A stretch of 64,000 bases of DNA from Litomosoides sigmodontis. Lineage: Eukaryota > Nematoda > Chromadorea > Rhabditida > Onchocercidae. Position numbers and translations under genes: made by a program. Within the stretch, counting starts at the first letter, position 1; every line of letters starts with the position of its first letter. The stretch covers positions 2,502,001-2,566,000 of the forward strand of contig OY718805.1 of the NCBI GenBank assembly GCA_963070105.1, written 5' to 3'. Below the pieces are notes generated by a model. It was given only the letters and a program-made list of their open reading frames with translations, was not told the origin of the DNA and did not search any database. Positions 1 to 45,800 of this stretch are shown here, in pieces.

Positions 1-936
1 GGTAAACATCCTGTATGCATGATTATCACTAAGCTTAACAGTTGCTCTAAAGCGATTTATCAGTGATTCATTTGTACATCTGAATCATCGATTTTAAAGT
101 AATTAAGAATGATATCCTTACGATTATCGCACTATTCGTTGCATCTCAGCTACAAGTAACGAGAGAGGTAGCAAAAATAATGAAAATATCATTATTCTTA
201 CGTGTCTTGAAATTTACTTCAATTACCAATATATGAGTTCCAGGCGAAGAATTTGATTCGGCGTAATCTAGTCAGAATTTAGGTATGGAAATAACCATTT
301 GATAAGTTGTTCGAAATCAGCCCCACTAGTTTGGGTAAAAATGAGCCCTTTGCTGAGTTAGTTTCGTTTAGTCCACCTCCCTGATTAGATGAACGCAATA
401 ATGATGCTGATACTCCACAATGATTCATTTTAATCATTTTATGATTTATTCAACGGTTATGCAAATTTTATTGAAAATCCAATTTTATACACATTCTTGA
501 AGAGTGCTGCACCTTGCGATACTTTTATTCGTTATCTGATATATGGTTATCGTACACTGAAACTGTTCACCTAAAATGAGCTTATTTATTTAATTGATTA
601 TTTCATATGTTTTGCAAAAATATTACACAATGTGATTTTGGATAAATATGCAAATTTAATTGTTAATCCCTTTTTTATCCATAAAATATAACTTCTTCAT
701 CGTAAGCAAATATTACGTGAAATATTGAAAAAGAATAAAGTTTCAACGACATTTCTGTTTGTTTCATTTCTAATTCATAGAATATTGTTTTTTTTTTTAA
801 ATTTGTCTTTTATCAGATGGTACTCTTTTCTCTTGCAAACTGGTTGAGACTATGACTATGGCGTTCAATTCTTCTGGCAAAAATAATTTAAGTTCTACCT
901 CTAGTTTCAACTGAAAACGTTAATTTATGGTTGCAG
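1..936. other. Stretch before the first WASHC4 exon found
   Basis: No coding exon could be supported here. The human family member has about 80 residues before the part that matches the first exon at 937, so one or two 5' exons are missing. They may lie upstream of the window or be short and hidden in this stretch. The window opens with GGTAAAC, which has the form of a 5' splice site, so base 1 could be the last base of an exon. That is speculation from six bases. The rest is AT-rich with short T runs. Confidence 0.5.
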
Positions 937-3900: not shown

Positions 3901-6900
3901 AGCGATAGGTAAGTTTACTAAGCTATTTTTGATACCAATAAATTGCAAGTTTTTGTGAACAGGGTGATTTCCTTTAATGAATTTAATGTTGCAGTTAGGT
4001 GAGTGGAAATGTGATATGAACGAAAAGTTGAAAGAGACACCTGAACGAATGTCGAAGGATCACTTAACGCTACGGATTTCACTTTTTTTGCGAGTAATTT
4101 TATTTGCCTAAAATATTTTTTAAAAATGCTTTATACACTGCAACATTTGACTCATACTTTTGTTGGAATAATTTTCAAGATCCTCTATTGCATACGAAAT
4201 TGACACATCGTGTACCAAATTACCATTTTATGAGTTTAAGTCGGGCATTTTATTTTTGGTTGGAAATAAAGATGATGGTAGAAAAATCAGAAATGAAAAA
4301 CATGATGTTAACTGTATAATACGTGTGTGCGTATGATTGATTTTCGATTAACGTACCTATTTCGTATAAGTATGAAATATTGTAAGAAATTTCTACATTG
4401 GCGAATTGAGCAATTCAAAAGATTTTTTAACATTTCAATTTTTGCTACAAATATTTTTGAAAGCAGTTTGAAATAAAAAAGACAACGAGTCAAAGGAACT
4501 GCAAAGCATTTTGCAGGGTATACGCTATGCAGATTTGTTGTGTCGCCTTTTGAAGACTTTGATGAGCAGATTGGTGATGGAGCAGAAAACTATATCACGT
4601 AGTTCAGCTTCAGCTGCTTTTCGTTTAATTGAAGCAGTTAAGGTATAACTTTATGTTTGTGGTTCTGAAAACTTAAATAGCGAAGATATACTTTGAAACG
4701 TCCAACATCCTTATTTACATTTTGACAGAGCAAGAATTTTCTGCTCTTCGTTTCTTTTCATGTGCTCAGAAACGAACGTTAATTTGCACTAATTTAATTT
4801 TTGCAGGAAATCGAGGAAGTATTCTATAAATGGTGGTATGATGTTTTAGAAAGTTGTCAAGAAGCAGCCCAATACTGTAGTGCTAAGCTTATTCATCTCA
4901 TCAGTGCGGTGCATCAAACAATTCGCAGCGAGTCGGATTTTTCCTACCGCACTGTCGACACACATTCCGCATTGACTGTTGCCGAGAATGCTCTTTCGGG
5001 TTCCAGCAAGTGTTTTCTTTTTTTTTGATTTTAAAATGAAATAAGATTTCTGTAAAAAAATTTTCTAGCATTAACGAACATAAATTGTTGTATTTTCCAC
5101 TTGGCCTTCTTCGAATCTGTCAAATTATCTCACTTTTCAAAAGTTGAACACTTTAGCTAATTCTTGATATTTCAGTTTCGAGGACTAGTCTAATTGTTGC
5201 TGGCACGGCGTTAGACATGGCTTCTTATACAGTAGGTGTTTTTTTTTTTCACTCTGCTTCGTTTCAGAGATATATGTTGGTTTAGTTTACACTTTTACTT
5301 TCCATTTATGTTGCATTTATTTGATTTGATAGATGCCATTTATTAAAACCGGTGAATAGTACTTTCTTTCATTTGCGAACAATATATTATTGGAGTTTTA
5401 CTTAATTGTCTATTATTTTGAAGAAAATATTTCGTGGCAATGATACCGAAAAAATGGACGAATTACTTTTACGTCTAGAAACCCTCTTATCATTTGGAAA
5501 TATCATTTCTCGCACCTGTAATTGTTCGTTTTTATTCTGGCACCGGTCGTTCATCGCCGCATATTTCAGCGCAGTCATTGAGGATAGCAAGTCGAGACCT
5601 GAGGTTTCTCCAGTGTTTTTTCATGTCCATTGTAGTATCGGAAGGTGTAGCTACAGAAGACATGCATTAATTGAAGCCATTTTAAATATAATTCCATGAC
5701 ACTCTATTTATGCTGCCACTTTTACTCCTGAATATTTCAGAATTTTTTTGTGGAATTTATGTAAATTTCATTTGTTGTTATGAATTAGAGATTTTCTGCA
5801 GCTTTTCTTCGCTGCGATTAATGACATAGAAACAATATTGGGTTCAGATGAGAATGCACTGGACATAAAGGTCAAGGAATCCATACGGGATGAATTGTAT
5901 GAGTTATATGAAAAGGTTAGAACTTAAAGTTGCAAGTACAGATTTATATAACCTGAAAACATGAAAGAGAATGGTATTTGAGAATTGGTTTGTTAGATTA
6001 AACTATGTATCAGCTCAGCCCTACTTTAGTACTAAATACGACTTCTGCCTGAGTGTTTGTTAATGACCGAAACTCGAATTTCTTTGAATACAATGACTCT
6101 TACTTATAAATTACAATTTATAAGTAAGAGAACAACTGTTGCTCTGTGATGTTGCTAAAAACTCTATATTGTTGGAGAATTCAAAATTCGATGATCGAAA
6201 TTTTACTATTTTTTGTTCGAATTTTTACCGTGTACATACGCGAAATCATTGACGTGATGAAACCTCTTTCAGTTGTATTTGAAAAAATTGTGTGAAGCAG
6301 TAGAAACAGATCTGCGGTTAACTGTTCATTCGCACCTTCAATTGGATGATCGTACACCGAAAGATCCAATGCATGATGCAAACATGCGTTTAGTTAATTT
6401 ATTGGAAATTCCAGCTGTCGAACTGTTTGATCGATTGATTGACGTTAAAAGTAGCTGTTATTTTTTTATGCAATAATGCTAGGACACTGTTAGAATATTG
6501 GTGGTATTAACACAAAAAGAATTAGTACTAACACAATTTTTTGTGAAGTAATAACATGTTATCAAAGAAAATAGAAACGAAACACTCAACAAGTTTAATG
6601 AAAAATAAGAATAAAGGCTATGGTCGGAGAAAGCAATGATCATATAAATTCTGCAAATTACTTAGTGGACAAAAGAATTGAGTAGCAAATTTGTTCACGA
6701 AGTAATAACTGAAAGTTATTCTTTCCTCCTTCAGTTCATCAAGATTTTAGGGTATGTTGAGGAATATTTGGAGAGTACTTTCTACAATTTGACAGCTGTC
6801 GCGTTGCATGATTCAAACACCTACATGGCGATGAGTTTGTTGGCGAAACAAAAGTATAACTTAATCTTATGTCAAAGTCGTTTACCATTTCAAAAGCTCG

Positions 6901-9900
6901 ATCAAGGCCCAGATGTGTTATTTATTGCCCGAAATATCGATTCGTTTGTGGAAAACTATGACTATAATTTAAATGAACAGGTACAGTATTATAAATTCAT
7001 ATATGACAAAATTTTCTGCCCTGTTTGTCAGAGTAGACATGTGAGATAATTTGGTGAGTTAATAGCTGCACTTTGCATATTGTAAATGTACATTTGCTGG
7101 TCAACTCTAATTTTTGTTAAATGGTGATTTTAACTATCAGTTCTACATGTATTTGAGATATGAAATTAAGTTATAATTGAAAAATTACTAAAACTGTTTG
7201 TCAGTTATGTGTTTTATGACTTTTATGATCGACTAATATGATTTATTCTTGCAAATTCGATAATAGTGTAAATCATTTTAAAGGGCTTGCAATGATTATT
7301 AGCTTCAAATATACAAACACTTCAAATATTTGTCTCTTTTACATTCATTATTACATTTCCGTTCTGCTTGTGAAAGTTAAAAATTTGGTTTAATTTCAGT
7401 TTTTTATCGAAAAAGATAGTAAAGGCAAGCAGTTGACAATATTAACTGCGGAACATGTTGTGAATTCGATACGTACTCACGGTATGGGTATAATGCATAC
7501 GACGGTATGATAAAATTTATTCACTTTCTGTGACAAATTTATTCATTTTTTTTCTGTGACAAATTAATTCATTTTTCATCCTCATGTTTTTAAGAGCAAG
7601 GAGAGGCAGTTAAAAAATGTTCACTGATTTATGAGAGTTTTAAAACTTGCCTTTAATGAGTTCTGATGAATTTCCTCTATTCGCATACACTTGAATTTCT
7701 TCACTCTTAAACTAATCATTTATAATGGTAATATTATTATGCAAGATTTCCAGCAGATTGAATGTTTGCAAATTTGAAAAGGAAACAAGCGCTTGAAAAA
7801 GTATCATTCTAAAAAAAAAAGAAAATAATTTCTCCACTACATTATTTCTCTTTTTGGATTTACATTGCAGATCAATCATGCTTATCAATTTCTGAAAAAG
7901 AAATTCCACGTTTTCTCACAGCTCTTATATGATGATCGTATTAGGAATCAATTGGTTAAGGATGAGCGATATTTTCATGAGAATGCTGAAAAACTTGAAA
8001 AAAAGGTTATTCTCTATCGCTTGACATGCTTAAAGAAATTTCTTTCCCTTAAATTTTCGCGTGAAAATATTTTCTGCTAATTAGTTCGAAGAACTGGAAG
8101 TTAGAAGTTTCAAATCACATTTCAGTATCCAGTGAATCGAGCACAACGTTTCAGCACCGCAATTCGGTTTCTTGGAGTTGGAGATGATGACTTATATTTG
8201 GATAAGTTATGTATTCTGATCACTGAAGTCGGAAATGTTATGGGTTACGTAAGGCTTGTCAGGTTAGCCGTTAATTTTTTTGTTAATTTCTGTAAACCCT
8301 GTTGATTTAGTTGATTATAGGAGATCGGAGTGACTTGCTCAGTGCTGTAGTTTCTTTCAGTAAGATACTTAGCTATAAAAAGCACTCTATGTAGCAGTAA
8401 ATCCTAGGATTTCTTGTATCTTTGGCTCCTTGTAACGGCGCTTATCGATTCACGAATTTGATCATGAGAGTTTTAAACTGTTGAATAATGACGTTGATAT
8501 CTTCTACTGTAAAATTCCGTGCCAAGGAATGCTTTTCGCATCGGGTGGGAATTTTTATATTGCAAAAAGTGCTAATTGATAATTAGGTTTAAAACGATTG
8601 AATAAGTTATCTTGCTATGCGTTTTTTTTTTCACTGATCTTTATATTTGAATGTTTCTGCTTTCGAACATCTGTTTTCAGGTTGCAGTTCTCAATTTGTT
8701 GAATATCTTATTTTTGATTTCGTATTAGAAACATCTAGGGAAAAGGCCATCCGAGGTGTCCATAATATGGATTTGAAGTCTTTTGTAATTTTCAAAAGAG
8801 CAGATTCATTTCGTTTTGAACTTTGCAGGTCAGGTGGTATTGAAGCGAGCATGCAGTCTTTAGGATTTCTTCCCAATCTCGATGATGTTCCAGCTTTTGG
8901 ACCGCTTGCGGTTAGTACGAAACTGTCACCAGAAAGTGTCTGTGCTGCTAAAGTATTAGATACTGTTTTCGACGTGGCGAAGAAGAATATTAATCAGTCA
9001 GACAACTATTTACAGGTTCTCATTCAAAATCTTTCCTATCTGTTGATAAAAAAAAATTGCCCTAAATCCTTTTAGAATGTCAAGTATGCGTATGCTGTCA
9101 GACAGATACGCATTTCAGATTTTGGTGGAAGCATTTGCGCCAGAATTACGTGGAAATACGAAATATGAACATTTGAACTTTTTTTACATGATTGTGCCAC
9201 CATTGACGATCAATTACGTGGATCGAATGCTCTCTTGCAAGGGGAAATTAGGACGAAGAGCGAAGCAGAATAATACCTTTACCGATGACGGATTCATTCT
9301 TGGTATAACTGCGAGAATTTTTTGGAAACTCAGTAACAAAATTTAAATCGAGCAGCAAAAGTTTGGAAAACTCTTTCTGTGTTTTAATGCTTAGAGAATT
9401 ATTAAATAAAAAACTGTGCGAGCCTTTAGTTTGCAGAAATCTTATATTCAGCACAAAATTTGGATAAGCTTCAAAACTTTGGTGATTCCAGGATAAGTTT
9501 TGAAATTAAAAAATTTTTAGGTGTAGCATTTATTCTGGAAGTACTAGATCAGCACAGCTACTTTTCGGATTTGAACTGGTTCCAATCGGTAGCTCGAGAA
9601 TGTGAGGAAGAAATTGTCAACGCTTCACTTGGTTCTAAAAGTTCATCCGCCAAAATTGCTTTAGATCCATCTACAGCAATCCGTCTAGCAAAGCTTGACC
9701 AATACCAAAAAGTTAGACTTTGATTCGTTTCGTAAATCATGTGTGCTTAAGTACGTGATAATTTGTGAAAAAAAAGAAAAAAAATTAAGCTAGAGTTGTA
9801 ATTCGCTCTGAAGCCTGTTAGTTCTGTTAATTATATCAAGATTTTCTTAAATTTAAAAAAAAAAATTGAGAAAAGTAAGCGTTTTTAGTATGCCATCGTT

Positions 9901-33850: not shown

Positions 33851-34702
33851 TCAATACAGACCGCAACTCTGGAAAAAATTCCAACAAAGTTCAAATTACC
33901 GTTGATTCATTAGTTATATAATTAACTGGCGATATAAGAAGACAACATAAAGAACCAACTGCAATGCGACTAAACTTTATCAAGATGAAAGTGATAAGTA
34001 AAAAAATTAAAAATTTTTTAAAAGAAAAAAATAACAAAAGAATCGAAAAAAGGACGAAAAAGTGCAAAGAAAAAAAGGACAAGTTTCTCAAGTTCAAAGC
34101 ACGAGTACGTCATTCATTTCTCCCATTAATTTCAAGTAAATTTCTAGTTATCTAATTATTTGGTTACTGAACTTCCGTTAAGCATTCTGGTATCCCGGAT
34201 GGTCTTCCAGTATCTTGCGTTGAACAGTGTCACATGACGATTTATTTACCAATTAAATTATACGTACAATTTCAAGTCACAGTTCTGTCAGTTCATACCT
34301 CAGACGGAGACTTTTAGAATCATAAATTGAGTTTGTAGAACATAGATAGGAAAATCCAAATTTAATTCTAACACCTCTTTTCTTCCTATTTACTTCTTCA
34401 AATAGAAATGTGACATTGTACAACATATGCTAAAAAACAAGAAAAGAATAAAATTGAAGCGAATATTTGAAAAGATAAACAGACTGTTGTAAGCAAAGGG
34501 AATTTTGATGAGACCAATGAGACATCGAAATTTCGCATCGGTCAACATCGCACCAGTCATTAGCCGTAAATTGTTGCACAAATTTGAAATTTATGGACGG
34601 CGCGTTTTCGTTGGCATTTTGTTGAGTTCTGGAAATGCGTTTTAATTCAATTTCGTGATTAGTTGATATTGAGTATTACTTAACTTGGACTTTAGGCATC
34701 CA
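33851..34702. promoter_or_regulatory. Divergent promoter region shared by APC1 and the CEP295-like gene
   Basis: The APC1 start codon (33850, -) and the CEP295-like start codon (34703, +) face away from each other with 852 bases between. Both promoters must lie here unless distant 5' exons exist. There is an A-rich/T-rich strand asymmetry around 33990-34085 but I recognise no specific promoter element. Sharing is inferred from geometry only. Confidence 0.5.
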
Positions 34703-36000
34703 ATGAGACGTTGCAGTACTACGACTGGAAGTTCGCAGCTAGCAATACTAACATCCAGTCAACGAGAAAGTATTATACGTAAGGAGCGCGAAAGGCGTAG
34801 ATTGATAAGGTATGCTAAGTGCTGGACTTCTGCCATTATGGTGAGAGTCTCATGAATTGATTTGGACTTTTGTTAAACTTTTAAAGATTTGAATGATGCC
34901 TGGATTTTTCTTTGTGTTTACTACACTGTTTTTCTTCTAGAACTTCCATGGAAGAAATATATGTTTTAGTAGTAGAGAAGAGGGATAAGAATGTATTAAA
35001 AATACCTTTTTTTTACTTTGCATGTATAATTAATAAAAACTTTGCATTCCCACTTCATCTGTTTTCCTTAATTTTTTCTTTTTTTTCAATTTTCCGAACT
35101 TCATTGGCAATGCTTTTTGTCATAAGGAAATTAATTTTTATGAAGCGATTAGTAGGGTGTGCCAATCGTAGTTTTGTGAGGACATTTCCATCCTTTTATA
35201 AGTCTCTCCTTCGACTAATTGCCCCAGATTTAAATTCATTTATACTCACTCTACCTGAAAGCCTAACTCATTTGCTTAATGTGCTAGAAAAGTCTTAAAT
35301 TTAGTTAAGAGATGAACAGATAGCCATATCATAAGGAGTAAAATTAATAGAGTCCGAACTATGCGGATATGTAATTGCTTAATCAGTAAAACATATCTTT
35401 TCGTGAAATCAAGCATGTATTTTGCAGATATCAGCAAGTGCGTCAATTAAGTGCTGAAAATGCAGCAAAAATACGGGAACGAGTTAAAATAGCAAAACAG
35501 AAGGAGATGGAGAAACTTAAAAAGCGTATAATGGACGCTATCGTTCAACGGAATCATTTAACTACAAACTGTGTAGTTTCCCCTATTCCTGTCGATAGCA
35601 GTACAGTGGTGAGGATTTTTTTTTTTAATTGATGGACAGTGGAAAAGATTACCGATCGACTCGATTGTCAAAAATATTTTGTTTGATACGACAAGGTTAC
35701 TCACTTGGTGCCATGCGTAAAAATTAGAACTTTTTTGGAAGTGTGTTAAAGGCGACCTGGGAATCTCATGTTTTGTAGTCTTAGCACTATTAAAATTTAA
35801 TTCAGCCTAGCGAAAAACCGCGTAGATCACGGCGGCGCCAAATCACGAATGAAGAATTGACGCGTGCAATACGTCGACATCGTGAAGCATTGGATCGATT
35901 ACGTCGAGAAAGTGAGAGGGAGCAACGACGACATGAGCTCATATTGGAAAGGCAAAGAAAGGCTCGTGAAGTTGCAAATATGCGATCGAGAAGGATCTAA
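34703..36000 (+). CDS. Short basic coiled-coil protein like the CEP295/Ana1 N-terminal head
   Basis: Three exons, 34703-34809, 35428-35608 and 35806-36000, join in phase to 160 residues and a TAA stop. The protein is rich in arginine, lysine and glutamate and predicted by eye to be mostly helix. The segment SIIRKERERRRLIRYQQVRQ and the following LSAENAAKIRERVKIAKQ match the pattern of human CEP295 (EAFILKEDYERRRKLRLLQV, then REQERDIALQIREDIKQ). The C-terminal part, with IRRHREALDRLRR and LILERQRKAREVANMRS, matches the next CEP295 block (RKADLRHKEAL, KARKEALLVEKKRS). CEP295/Ana1 is a centriole-to-centrosome conversion factor of about 2,600 residues in humans; here only the head exists. A generic charged coiled coil could imitate this, but agreement runs over both blocks in order. 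Neighbour: divergent from APC1. Confidence 0.6.
34912..35298 (+). other. Open frame of 128 codons inside an intron of the CEP295-like gene
   Basis: This frame lies wholly within the first intron (34810-35427) on the same strand. It is phenylalanine- and leucine-rich in its first half and ends LNSFILTLPESLTHLLNVLE. I recognise no family. It may be chance, given AT-rich sequence with T-rich codons, or an alternative exon. Confidence 0.2.
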
Positions 36001-38617: not shown

Positions 38618-41600
38618 TTAATCTTCGAATATCCTAAAATGTGTAAATGGACAAACCATAATTTTGCTTGTCACAGGTTCAATGCTACCACCAAATCGAA
38701 CATCTTGTTGTTGCTCGTACTGCGCTTGTGCAACAGCATCTTGCAACGATACAAACATGTAACTTTTGGGTACATGGTCGTAGAAATGTGAATTCTCGAA
38801 CATTTGTCGTACAGCTACTTAAATACTTGTAAAATTATAATTTCAATTTCCTTTTTTTGTGCCCTAACGATTACGAAATTTGTTCGCTATTGTTATCAGT
38901 TATTTTTGTGAAACGATGCAGAATTTGTATTGGATTAGCAAATGATTTCTGATAGTCGGTATGTAATCATTATGTGATAAGGATAGATGAACCAGAGAGC
39001 TGCAACTGTTATCAGTAAAGTTTTAAAAAAAAAAAGAATCTGTTGACCTTTGCAACAAGCAAAAAATACAGTAATATTGATAGCTTTATATTCGGCATGT
39101 GCTCGTGCAAGCGCATCAACACCCATCAGATCGATGTATGGAAAGGATGAGCAATCGACGATGATATGTGTCAATTGAATTAACTCTTCCGCTTCCTCAA
39201 CTCTTTCGACATTTCGTTTCGATGAGTGGATACAGTGTCGTCGTACTGTCAACTCTATCAGTAAAATTATTATTATTGCTAATTTTTGTTAATTAAAAAA
39301 TTAAATGAAAAACTTGTCATTTACCTCACCACTGGTTTCATTTGTAAATTTAATGACAGTGCAAGAAGAAACAAAACAAAAGGTATAATCAATATTATTT
39401 GAATATTTTTCAAAACGAAAAAACGGCACAAATGAGTAGGTAATTCATTAAATTAAGTAACAGTAAGGTGAAAGGTAAAGGTAACTGATATTACTGTTAA
39501 ATAGCTGAAAGGGACATCAATGAACCTACCAATTTCCTCATCATGATTTGCAACCTCATCTCTTCTATTAGCAATCTCACTAGTTGCTTTTTTCTTTTCA
39601 TTAACTGTTTGTTTAAGCTTTGCTACAATATTTAATGGATCAAGGCCTGTTGCGCTAAAACAAAAAAAATAAATTAGCAAATTAAGTGAAAATTCTGCTA
39701 AAAATTATGAATTGAGATATTACTACATATTATTTTATCTCATAATTATGCAATCAAAATTAAGCAATCAATTGATAAGAAAGTGAGCAAATAATTAATT
39801 GTTGATTTTCAAGTAAACGACTTTGAACTTTCAAACTTTTTAAACAAACATTGTTGAAAGTCTGAAAAGTTTAATTCAATCAAAAAAAAAAATAACTGTT
39901 CAAGTAAGCAATATAGAAGTGCAAACTTAACCTATGTATGCTCGATAAAAATAATTCAGCATTTGCAAAATACAACGGCGCATCAAATCGAAAGACTTTA
40001 ATGCCCGAAATTTCCATAGCTGTACGATAATGACCGATACCTTTGAAATCTGACGTTCCCGGAATACGTCCCATACACGTACTTTCCGCCCTTAATCATT
40101 TCATAGACATTTATTTAGTACTTTTATTGTAAATAATTAATTCATTGAAAAAAAATTACCATTACTAAAAGGAAATTGCTTCAATTTTTTTTGCACGAAA
40201 AATAAAGAGGCGAAGAAAAGTTCAGTTAGAGAAAATAACAAAACATTGTCGTTTAGCTTCCTTTGATGCAATAAAGTGTTGAGAAATAATTTATAAAAAA
40301 ACAAAAGGAAAATCCAATTATCAACATTTTATCATAATCAGATCATTCTATCAGAATTAATTTAGCAACCAATGAACGACGTGTCTTTTTGCGCACTTTT
40401 CGTTTTCATGCACTAATAAATAAAAGTTTTAAGGAAAATTTTTTAGCAATTAAATAAATTTCCGAAGAGATTTTGAAGACAAAATATAGCATTTTAATCA
40501 TTTAAGTATTTCAGTACTCAATGAGATACCATTGTGATCGTAGTACGACGGTGAGAAGGGCGAAAACGACACCAATTGCAAGTCCAATATTAACATTTAT
40601 CAGAATAACCGCTGTAAATGTTACCAAAAATATGAACTAAAAACAAAAAAAGTGATAAACAGGAATTAAATTTTTGCTTTTCCAATTCCAACTGTATATC
40701 TTTCATGTCTACGAAATATCATTACTTTCCAAAGTTTTGTCCATAAAACTGTATTAATCAGTTGTTTTAACTAAAATATCGCATATATGTAGTAAAAGCA
40801 TTGTGAAATTTAAATGAAATTTAACGGAAAGAATTAATAATTGGAAGAGAAATAAAACTTTAGCAGAAAGCTAACAAAATCAACGATTGATTCTTGAAAA
40901 AGTACACGTGACCAGCATATTTTTAGGTATAACTCCTTCATTGCAACCACAACAATGCACGACAATACTGTCTTAAAAATTATCACATGAAGTAAATTTT
41001 AATTTTAATTTGAGCAACGAATTGAAATTGAAAAAGCATTAAATTTGCAATTACTCATTTGTTTAATAAATATTTATTCACTTAATTTCTATTCTTACTT
41101 CATACTCCAATTACTCATATTTTCAATGCTTTCTTCTATCTCACATAAGAATGGATGAAATTAAAGCTGTGTTGAAAATGAAATATGAATTACTTCCATT
41201 TTTATTTATGTATTTTATTTAATGAAATCAAACGGTACGTTGTATGAAATACCTTAGGCAAATATTTGAACAAAGGCGCAGCGCCGAATGCAATAATTAG
41301 CAGTACTATAACTACCACCAACGTTGTTAGCTAAAAATAGCCGCGTAAGTGTTGCAATCAGACGTAGCGTGAGATGAGTATTAAAAGAAAAAAGGCTAAA
41401 TTTTGGTAATCAATTAGACTTATTTGGTTGAATTAACTCAGCGCTTCACTTCAGACTTCATAATGATACGATAGATAACTGTAAAACGTTTAAGCGTACT
41501 TAATGCTTACTAAATAAATAAAACCAAAAAGGTATGTTGAAGGTGTATGTATGTAAATATTTCAGATGTTCGCAAGAAACAAAAAAAAAGTTTTTGGGAA

Positions 41601-44600: not shown

Positions 44601-45800
44601 TGTTCGCAATTGTTTGCATTTGTTGTTGTCAGACAATTTAATTTTAAGAATAGCTAGTGATACTAAAGAAATTTAAAATTTCTCTTTTTTCGATTACCCG
44701 CCTATAGCCGTGTTTTTTGTCAAACTGTTCCTGATTTATTGCAGGCTTATATTCCGCTTTCAAAGTTAATTGCATTTCCGACTTTTGCACGCTAAAAATA
44801 TATTTGCATGCAATCATGGTTAATAATTATTAAATACGATATGCCTAGAAGTGAATTTCAAACGCTACGGCGTTTAGAAGTGAACTTGCAGCAGAAATCA
44901 AATATTCTGAAATGAAAAATTCTAAAGTGTAGGCTTCCTTATGGTTGTGCAGTAAGTCAATTTCTAGCTAATCCTAATAGCCTCGAGAAAGGCGGAGGAG
45001 TGGAGGCAATTTCACACGCAGTGTTCAATTCCTGCTCTCGAGATGTTTTCATTTGCGACTTCTGTGATTGTGTTTTGTCCTTTTTACTCAATTGATTCCC
45101 ATTTCTTGCATATTTTGTCGTTTTATGCTTCATATTTGTTGCATCAGAAGAGTACATTGCTGCAAAAGTAACTTCAATTTAATTCAATTTCAGTTTTAAT
45201 CCTCTAAATTGTAATGTGAGAATTTCAAAAAAAAAAACAAAAAGAAAGAGCCGATATTGAAAGCAAAATTGGACAAAGTTACAAGAAATAATTAGCGAGT
45301 AAAATGCGCAGATAATATGTAGCATCGTTTGGAACGTGAAAATTACGCGAGTGCTACACGTACCAATCAATCTTTAAAGCTATTAAATTGCACCAATCTT
45401 TGGCAGTTATTTATGATTTAGTCAATTTGGCAAACAATATCGTCAATTCTTCCTTCGCTCATTGATTTAAGCGTAAATTTTATATCGTAGCAGCGTAACC
45501 TACTGCATTGCTACGAGATTTACGCTTAAATAAGCATAAGACATCCGATCATTCGGACATCAATGCTGCTGGTGCGTGAGAGCAGTGAAATTTTGTAAAT
45601 TAATAAATCATAATTTGCTTATTATCATTTCCTTTTCGAAACTGAGAATTATCTCTATGCTTATTGCTATCATTACTTGAATCGGTAACGGATGATGACG
45701 CAGTGAAATTTCTAGCTTCAAAGGATGGCAAGTGACTTCCAGCGTTTTCTGTCATTGCTGCAACTGTGGGCCGATCGACGTGCTTCTTTTGATCAGCCAT
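38618..45800 (-). CDS. SLC26/SulP family anion transporter with STAS domain, 17 exons
   Basis: Membrane exchanger or channel for sulfate, chloride, bicarbonate or oxalate; substrate cannot be read from sequence. Exons: 45800-45677, 45159-45018, 44791-44698, 44316-44230, 44131-44026, 43931-43821, 43645-43467, 43386-43219, 42742-42587, 42204-41971, 41830-41717, 41330-41253, 40636-40530, 40090-39932, 39654-39530, 39254-39048, 38817-38618. All phases match; 796 residues. Residues 1-95 are polar and probably disordered. Then YKPAINQEQFDKKHG, the SulP signature IYIPQGLAYGVMVG, PPIYGIYTG, FLGTSRHAS, the helices LTTLVVVIVVLLII and FIFLVTFTAVILINVNIGLA, and GRIPGTSDFKGI. The STAS domain follows (FRFDAPLYFANAELF; later HIIVDCSSFPYIDLMGVDAL), with a charged insert (residues KLKQTVNEKKKATSE) between its first strand and core. 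The first two exons are supported only by splice phase. Confidence 0.93.
45466..45530. repeat. Interrupted hairpin, 13-bp outer and 7-bp inner stem
   Basis: TTTAAGCGTAAAT at 45466-45478 pairs exactly with 45518-45530, and CGTAGCA at 45486-45492 pairs with 45509-45515. The loop is 16 bases. It lies in the first intron of the SLC26 model (45160-45676). The shape is like a small fold-back element or a pre-miRNA-sized stem, but the unequal internal bulge (7 versus 2 bases) is large for a microRNA. Confidence 0.75.

What the first reader, a model, noticed from the sequence alone, without database searches (positions are those of the whole stretch)
34703..36000. A 160-residue 'head-only' CEP295/Ana1-like protein in a nematode
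Seen: three exons joining in phase to a highly basic coiled-coil protein whose two blocks match, in order, the first and third blocks of the human CEP295 N-terminus. Known: CEP295/Ana1 is a large centriole protein needed for centriole-to-centrosome conversion, and I know of no established nematode orthologue. Inference: nematodes may keep a miniature version with only the N-terminal centriole-binding part. If right, this would fill a gap in the worm centriole parts list.
Basis: partly seen in the sequence, partly recalled or inferred. Interest (0 to 1): 0.75.

Follow-up and report, generated by a model that had tools for sequence, protein, structure and literature searches.

The report
Head-only CEP295-like protein in filarial worms
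Filarial worms carry a small conserved gene that matches only the first 160 or so residues of CEP295, a large centriole protein that nematodes were said to lack, so the worms may keep a stripped-down version of it.

Summary
The three-exon gene is real: its 160-residue product has relatives of similar length and ending in filariae and Thelazia. The genome holds it at one locus.

The CEP295 link holds up. A profile of 11 vertebrate CEP295 heads scores all 11 filarial proteins tested at 19.8-31.4 bits, against 15.7 for the best of 177,635 PDB sequences and 17.6 for the best of 18,000 shuffles. Profile-profile comparison aligns filarial 17-161 with CEP295 13-164 in order (95.5%); seven other CEP295 windows stay below 10%. 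Block 1 is strong, the last block weak alone. Pfam PF28375, listed on CEP295 proteins, is also on the Acanthocheilonema relative.

The match corresponds to the CR1/DDC8-like domain, needed for centriole localisation in human cells. The CEP295 tail is missing. A 2017 commentary says nematodes have no CEP295/Ana1 homologue. Centriole function is inferred, not tested; nematodes outside these groups were not properly searched.

The parts
34703..34809 (+). exon 1: ATG, variable residues 1-14, start of block 1 up to ...RRRLIR
   Evidence: conserved in relatives
34810..35427 (+). intron 1 (GTATGC...TTGCAG); extra residues sit at this junction in the database models P0008-P0011, P0013 and P0014
35428..35608 (+). 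exon 2: rest of block 1 (YQQVRQLSAENAAKIRERVK...), predicted helix to residue 82, start of the disordered linker
35609..35805 (+). intron 2 (GTGAGG...ATTCAG); the database model P0001 fits an earlier donor after 35590
35806..36000 (+). exon 3: linker end, block matching CEP295 about 115-164 (RAIRRHREAL...), C-terminus RSRRI, stop TAA

Best explanation
The gene encodes a natural, stand-alone version of the N-terminal CR1 (DDC8-like) domain of CEP295/Ana1, kept by filarial and related nematodes after the rest of CEP295 was lost or changed beyond recognition. Two long basic helices (residues 18-82 and 111-159) joined by a flexible linker are predicted. I propose that it sits on or in the centriole wall through the conserved first helix, as the DDC8-like domain does for human CEP295, and helps stabilise or position the wall. 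It lacks the tail that recruits CEP192 (human) and Asl/CEP152 (fly); in C. elegans the recruiting step is done by SAS-7 acting on SPD-2. Shown: the gene, its conservation, homology to the CEP295 head, the missing tail. Inferred: centriole location and role. My split: homology to the CEP295 head 0.92; centriole or basal-body role given homology 0.75.
For: CEP295-head profile A3 against 11 filarial proteins (window and P0001 are near-duplicates): 19.8-31.4 bits in 11 of 11, E 1.5e-6 to 0.0053 for 177,635 sequences. Same profile against 177,635 PDB sequences: 4 matches at E<=10, best 15.7 bits. Best of 18,000 local shuffles of six filarial proteins 17.6. Filarial profile A4 against PDB: 0 matches at E<=10. 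hhalign 95.5% over filarial 17-161 to CEP295 13-164; seven other CEP295 windows, some overlapping, all under 10%. Score 47.0 against a maximum of 30.8 in 200 column and 200 heptad-block permutations. The best place for the filarial profile is the N-terminus in 119 of 120 CEP295 proteins. PF28375.1 is listed on P0004, alone among the 18 relatives, and on all 120 listed CEP295 rows as I read them. Human CEP295 without the DDC8-like domain does not reach centrioles (PMC5007451, passages). CR1 is described as found in all CEP295/Ana1 homologs (PMC13422256, passages). An exon matching SAS-6_N above its cut-off is in this genome.
Against: Pairwise identity is low (block 1 14-23 of 55, block 3 7-17 of 45, 20 pairs). 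With HMMER's composition correction the filarial profile reports only 9 of 120 CEP295 proteins, all frogs; the median row has 8.4 bits and the lowest rodent rows 0.1-1.3. In one search (35 CEP295 heads) only block 1 aligned. In one search block 1 of P0016 (17.0 bits) does not exceed the shuffle maximum (19.3), and block 3 is weak in all 11 (2.8-11.4). A conserved stretch of the CEP295 head (about 68-113) has no counterpart. One frog head as query did not find the locus in the genome. In flies an Ana1 C-terminal region without the N-terminus localises weakly to centrosomes, though a residual protein complicates that result (PMC13422256, passages). No expression, localisation or genetics here. 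The CEP295 profiles are vertebrate only.
Confidence: 0.7

Rival explanations
1. Convergence: an unrelated, arginine- and glutamate-rich coiled coil that resembles CEP295 by composition and helix periodicity.
For: Very biased composition (35 Arg, 17 Glu in 160); HMMER bias terms of about 5-35 bits; the Pfam copy used here gives only matches below cut-off, the best DUF7648 at E 0.0019, three of 19 members.
Against: Shuffles that keep composition in 20-residue pieces and decoys that keep heptads do not reach the real scores; nothing in PDB matches the filarial profile at E<=10; matches are colinear at nearly the same residue numbers, not scattered over other CEP295 coiled coils; the newer Pfam model PF28375 marks P0004.
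Confidence: 0.08
2. It is an ALMS-motif protein (the CEP295/ALMS1 C-terminal motif), as UniProt's automatic name for several relatives says.
For: UniProt names 'ALMS motif domain-containing' for several relatives; a 22-25 residue resemblance of filarial 46-70 to the end of the ALMS motif.
Confidence: 0.04
3. Homologous head, but recruited to another job (for example a cytoplasmic microtubule binder or a regulator unrelated to centrioles), or a natural brake that competes at centrioles rather than building them.
For: Loss of every other CEP295 part; exogenous human CEP295 1-560 associates with microtubules and is dominant-negative on centriole elongation (PMC4958302, passages); in flies CR1 deletion left Cep135 and microtubule binding intact, so its own role is open (PMC13422256, passages).
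Against: The only requirement of the matching human domain in the passages I read is centriole localisation. The human fragment is much longer than 160 residues.
Confidence: 0.2

Closest known systems
CEP295 (vertebrates), N-terminal DDC8-like / CR1 domain
   Same: Two helical blocks in order at nearly the same residue numbers: LxPNxxxxxxxERERRRxxRxQQVR...IR and RAxxRHREAL
   Different: 160 against 1056-2259 residues in the listed proteins; the stretch about 68-113 has no counterpart; residues from 165 on, and the ALMS motif, are absent
Drosophila Ana1
   Same: Described as sharing the CR1 domain (aa 19-134) with all CEP295 homologs (PMC13422256, passages)
   Different: Ana1 is 1729 aa with Cep135-, microtubule- and Asl-binding regions outside CR1; its sequence was not compared here
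Mammalian DDC8 / CEP295NL
   Same: A separate gene resembling the CEP295 head; 'DDC8-like domain' is the name used in PMC5007451 (passages). That DDC8 equals CEP295NL, and that it is a head-like paralogue, is recalled
   Different: Stands beside an intact CEP295 in mammals (recalled); sequence not compared here
C. elegans SAS-7
   Same: Called the apparent functional analogue of CEP295 (PMC5342821, passages)
   Different: 1014-aa coiled-coil protein, no CEP295 similarity reported; not compared here

Membership tests
CEP295/Ana1 | N-terminal CR1 / DDC8-like domain | tested here: met
   PF28375 on P0004 and CEP295. Block 1 strong, last block weak alone. Tested against vertebrate sequences only
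CEP295/Ana1 | rest of the conserved head (vertebrate 165-330; fly Cep135/microtubule region 180-497) | tested here: not met
   protein ends at the equivalent of residue 164; hhalign to window 170-345 is 0.6%
CEP295/Ana1 | C-terminal PICA motif and CEP192/Asl-binding tail | tested here: not met
   the 160-aa protein has no tail. For the rest of the genome the test is weak: frog CEP295 P0121 finds one chance-like match, E 0.53, and PICA letters were not available, so a tail elsewhere is not excluded
CEP295/Ana1 | ALMS motif (vertebrates) | tested here: not met
   ALMS-end profile hits 0 of 11
CEP295/Ana1 | location at the centriole wall | not testable with these tools
   needs imaging
ALMS-motif proteins (ALMS1, CEP295, C10orf90) | ALMS motif | tested here: not met
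   (0 of 11)

The most novel reading that the evidence does not exclude
CR1 is a self-sufficient centriole module, separable from the converter tail of CEP295. Nematodes that lost the tail and handed its work to SAS-7/SPD-2 keep CR1 alone, either as a wall component or as a natural dominant-negative-like limit on centriole length (centrioles are short in C. elegans, about 175 nm, PMC9531800, passages; filarial ones were not looked up).
Probability: 0.35. Interest if true: 0.8.

Novelty: new variant of a known kind. Interest (0 to 1): 0.62.

Why it matters
CEP295/Ana1 is required for centriole-to-centrosome conversion in flies and vertebrates, and a 2017 commentary states that nematodes have no homologue (PMC5342821, passages). 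A CR1-only protein in filariae contradicts the strict form of that statement. It would be evolution's own truncation of CEP295, isolating the conserved domain whose job in flies is still open: CR1 deletion spared Cep135 and microtubule binding, although a CR1 fragment alone binds Cep135 weakly (PMC13422256, passages). Testing one 160-residue protein is far easier than testing a 2600-residue one.

Tried and rejected
Pfam, NCBIfam and PDB sequence searches with the filarial proteins gave only matches below cut-off: Pfam's best was DUF7648, E 0.0019, three of 19 members (16.9 bits against a cut-off of 27 in P0014); NCBIfam gave three matches at E 0.0058-0.034, 14-16 bits against cut-offs of 100 or more. 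Foldseek against PDB gave one meaningless match, E 7.1. PF28375 is not in the local Pfam copy, so its name and position could not be read; that it is an N-terminal CEP295 model is my inference. A single frog head against the genome found nothing, which the tool says shows nothing. P0121 against the genome gave one lysine/serine-rich frame on C4, rejected as chance. In a six-frame scan of the window with the CEP295-head profile the frames of the three exons ranked 2, 3 and 5 of 2098, while rank 1 was an unrelated short frame at 44960-45178(-), so single exons are not diagnostic. RTTN and PPP1R35, whose fly counterparts help recruit Ana1 (PMC11127918, abstract and passages), were not found in the genome, but no control genome rang, so this is not evidence of absence. 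Promoter and poly-A scans were uninformative. Literature: I saw listings (30 of 48; 20 of 26; 10 of 4,197; 7 of 7), and passages of the papers named in this report, of PMC10425847, PMC12141670, PMC6281471 and PMC7255964; none that I saw describes a nematode CEP295. Subscription papers are mostly not held.

The search was not a reciprocal search: with a 1297-residue query it only considers proteins of about 713-2270 residues, so short nematode proteins could not appear. The 323 of 443 hits that were not listed may include invertebrates.

Relatives: one search gave 18 rows and one search gave 21. For the profile tests I used the window protein plus 10 database proteins (fil set), or plus nine without P0001 (A4). 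I left out P0008-P0011, P0013 and P0014 (extra residues at the intron-1 junction) and P0017-P0021 (fragments). CEP295: of the 120 held proteins 35 below 90% identity were used in A3.

Full report
What is there. The window sequence 34703-36000 (+) holds three exons, 107, 181 and 195 bases, with GT/AG borders, joining in phase to 160 residues and a TAA stop; an in-frame TGA begins 33 bases upstream of the ATG. The window is part of a 65.9-Mb, 7-contig assembly and the protein matches there only at this locus, as three exon matches. The annotated protein P0001 of Litomosoides sigmodontis is identical to the product apart from six missing residues, so the genome is that species or a very close relative. 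The missing residues fit a donor 18 bases earlier in exon 2.

Conservation. The protein search found 18 relatives, and a profile search 21. Named species are filariae (Litomosoides, Elaeophora, Loa, Acanthocheilonema, Cercopithifilaria, Dirofilaria, Brugia, Onchocerca, Wuchereria, Setaria) and Thelazia; five come from a source without names. Of the 18, 14 have 154-174 residues and 15 end in RS(R/K)(R/E)(I/V), so the short length is conserved. The most conserved stretches are about residues 28-59 and the region around RRHREAL. The profile search scored only the 7,992 candidates sharing most words, and only proteins of similar length, so absence from other nematodes is not shown.

Test of the CEP295 claim. 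A search with a recalled human CEP295 head (residues 1-170) gave 443 proteins, of which 120 were listed: all from vertebrates, most named CEP295. Profiles were built separately. The vertebrate head profile A3 (11 sequences) scores all 11 filarial proteins at 19.8-31.4 bits (window protein 21.9); the best of 177,635 PDB sequences has 15.7 and the best of 18,000 local shuffles of six filarial proteins 17.6. The filarial profile A4 matches nothing in PDB at E<=10, but scores frog CEP295 at up to 31.1 bits. The best place of the filarial profile lies at the N-terminus in 119 of 120 CEP295 proteins. Against this: with the composition correction only 9 of 120 are reported, all frogs; the median row has 8.4 bits and the lowest rodent rows 0.1-1.3.

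Profile-profile comparison. With 35 CEP295 heads hhalign gives 92.5%, score 47.0, against 400 permuted decoys with a maximum of 30.8; there only block 1 aligns. With 21 full-length CEP295 proteins one alignment covers filarial 17-161 and CEP295 13-164 at 95.5%, while seven other CEP295 windows, some overlapping, including two over the ALMS region, stay under 10%. The session's own comparison tool gives 91.9% over filarial 16-137. Split in two, block 1 gives 96.1% and the last block 69.6% (45.6% with the set), and neither matches the other's partner. By HMMER block 1 gets 17.0-32.5 bits, 10 of 11 above the shuffle maximum of 19.3. The last block is weak: 2.8-11.4 bits, window 4.6, shuffles 99% at 5.9 and maximum 16.3, though in the same register in all 11. 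The conserved stretch of CEP295 between them (about 68-113) has no counterpart.

Independent marks. The database lists Pfam PF28375.1 on the Acanthocheilonema relative P0004 (1 of 18) and, as I read the listing, on all 120 CEP295 rows, including those without the ALMS motif model. This model is absent from the local Pfam copy. UniProt's 'ALMS motif' names for relatives are not supported by our tests: an ALMS-end profile hits 0 of 11.

Structure. AlphaFold2 on alignment A4 predicts two long helices, 18-82 and 111-159, mean pLDDT 81.3, pTM 0.34, with a low-confidence linker. There is no informative fold match.

Biology. In human cells CEP295 lacking the DDC8-like N-terminal domain does not reach centrioles, and the PICA region near the C-terminus is needed for centrosome formation (PMC5007451, passages). 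Fly Ana1 binds Asl/Cep152 through its C-terminal part (PMC11565839, passages). In flies the CR1 domain (aa 19-134) is called common to all CEP295/Ana1 homologs; a CR1 fragment binds Cep135 weakly, but its deletion did not affect Cep135 or microtubule binding, leaving its own function open (PMC13422256, passages). That human DDC8-like and fly CR1 name the same domain is stated there by citation of the human paper; that the filarial match equals it is my inference from position. Exogenous human residues 1-560 act as dominant negative on centriole elongation (PMC4958302, passages). A commentary on SAS-7 states that nematodes have no CEP295/Ana1 homologue and calls SAS-7 the apparent functional analogue (PMC5342821, passages). 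An exon of SAS-6 is in this genome, so a core centriole part is there.

Verdict. The finding stands: a conserved, head-only CEP295-like protein in filariae and Thelazia. Membership in the full CEP295 family is not met because the tail is absent; membership in the CR1 domain family is met. The proposed work is at the centriole wall, with tail functions handed to SAS-7/SPD-2; this step is inference.

Noticed in passing
window 34690-34702: CTTTAG ends seven bases before the ATG and could be a spliced-leader acceptor; not tested.
   Followed up: no
window 35591-35608: The database protein of L. sigmodontis (P0001) fits an earlier exon-2 donor, losing six residues that relatives keep; probable annotation error.
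   Followed up: partly
window 6666-7046 (+): Exon of a WASH complex subunit 7 gene (Pfam WASH-7_mid, E 2.8e-32).
   Followed up: no
window 38938-39288 (-): Frame with a STAS domain (E 1.9e-10), perhaps of a sulphate-transporter-type gene, about 3 kb downstream on the other strand.
   Followed up: no
P0006 (Dirofilaria immitis): The relative is named 'Calpain-type cysteine protease' in its source, which the 161-residue sequence does not bear out; probable misannotation.
   Followed up: no
P0008-P0011, P0013, P0014: Six filarial database models carry extra residues at the intron-1 junction, typical of unsupported splice predictions.
   Followed up: partly
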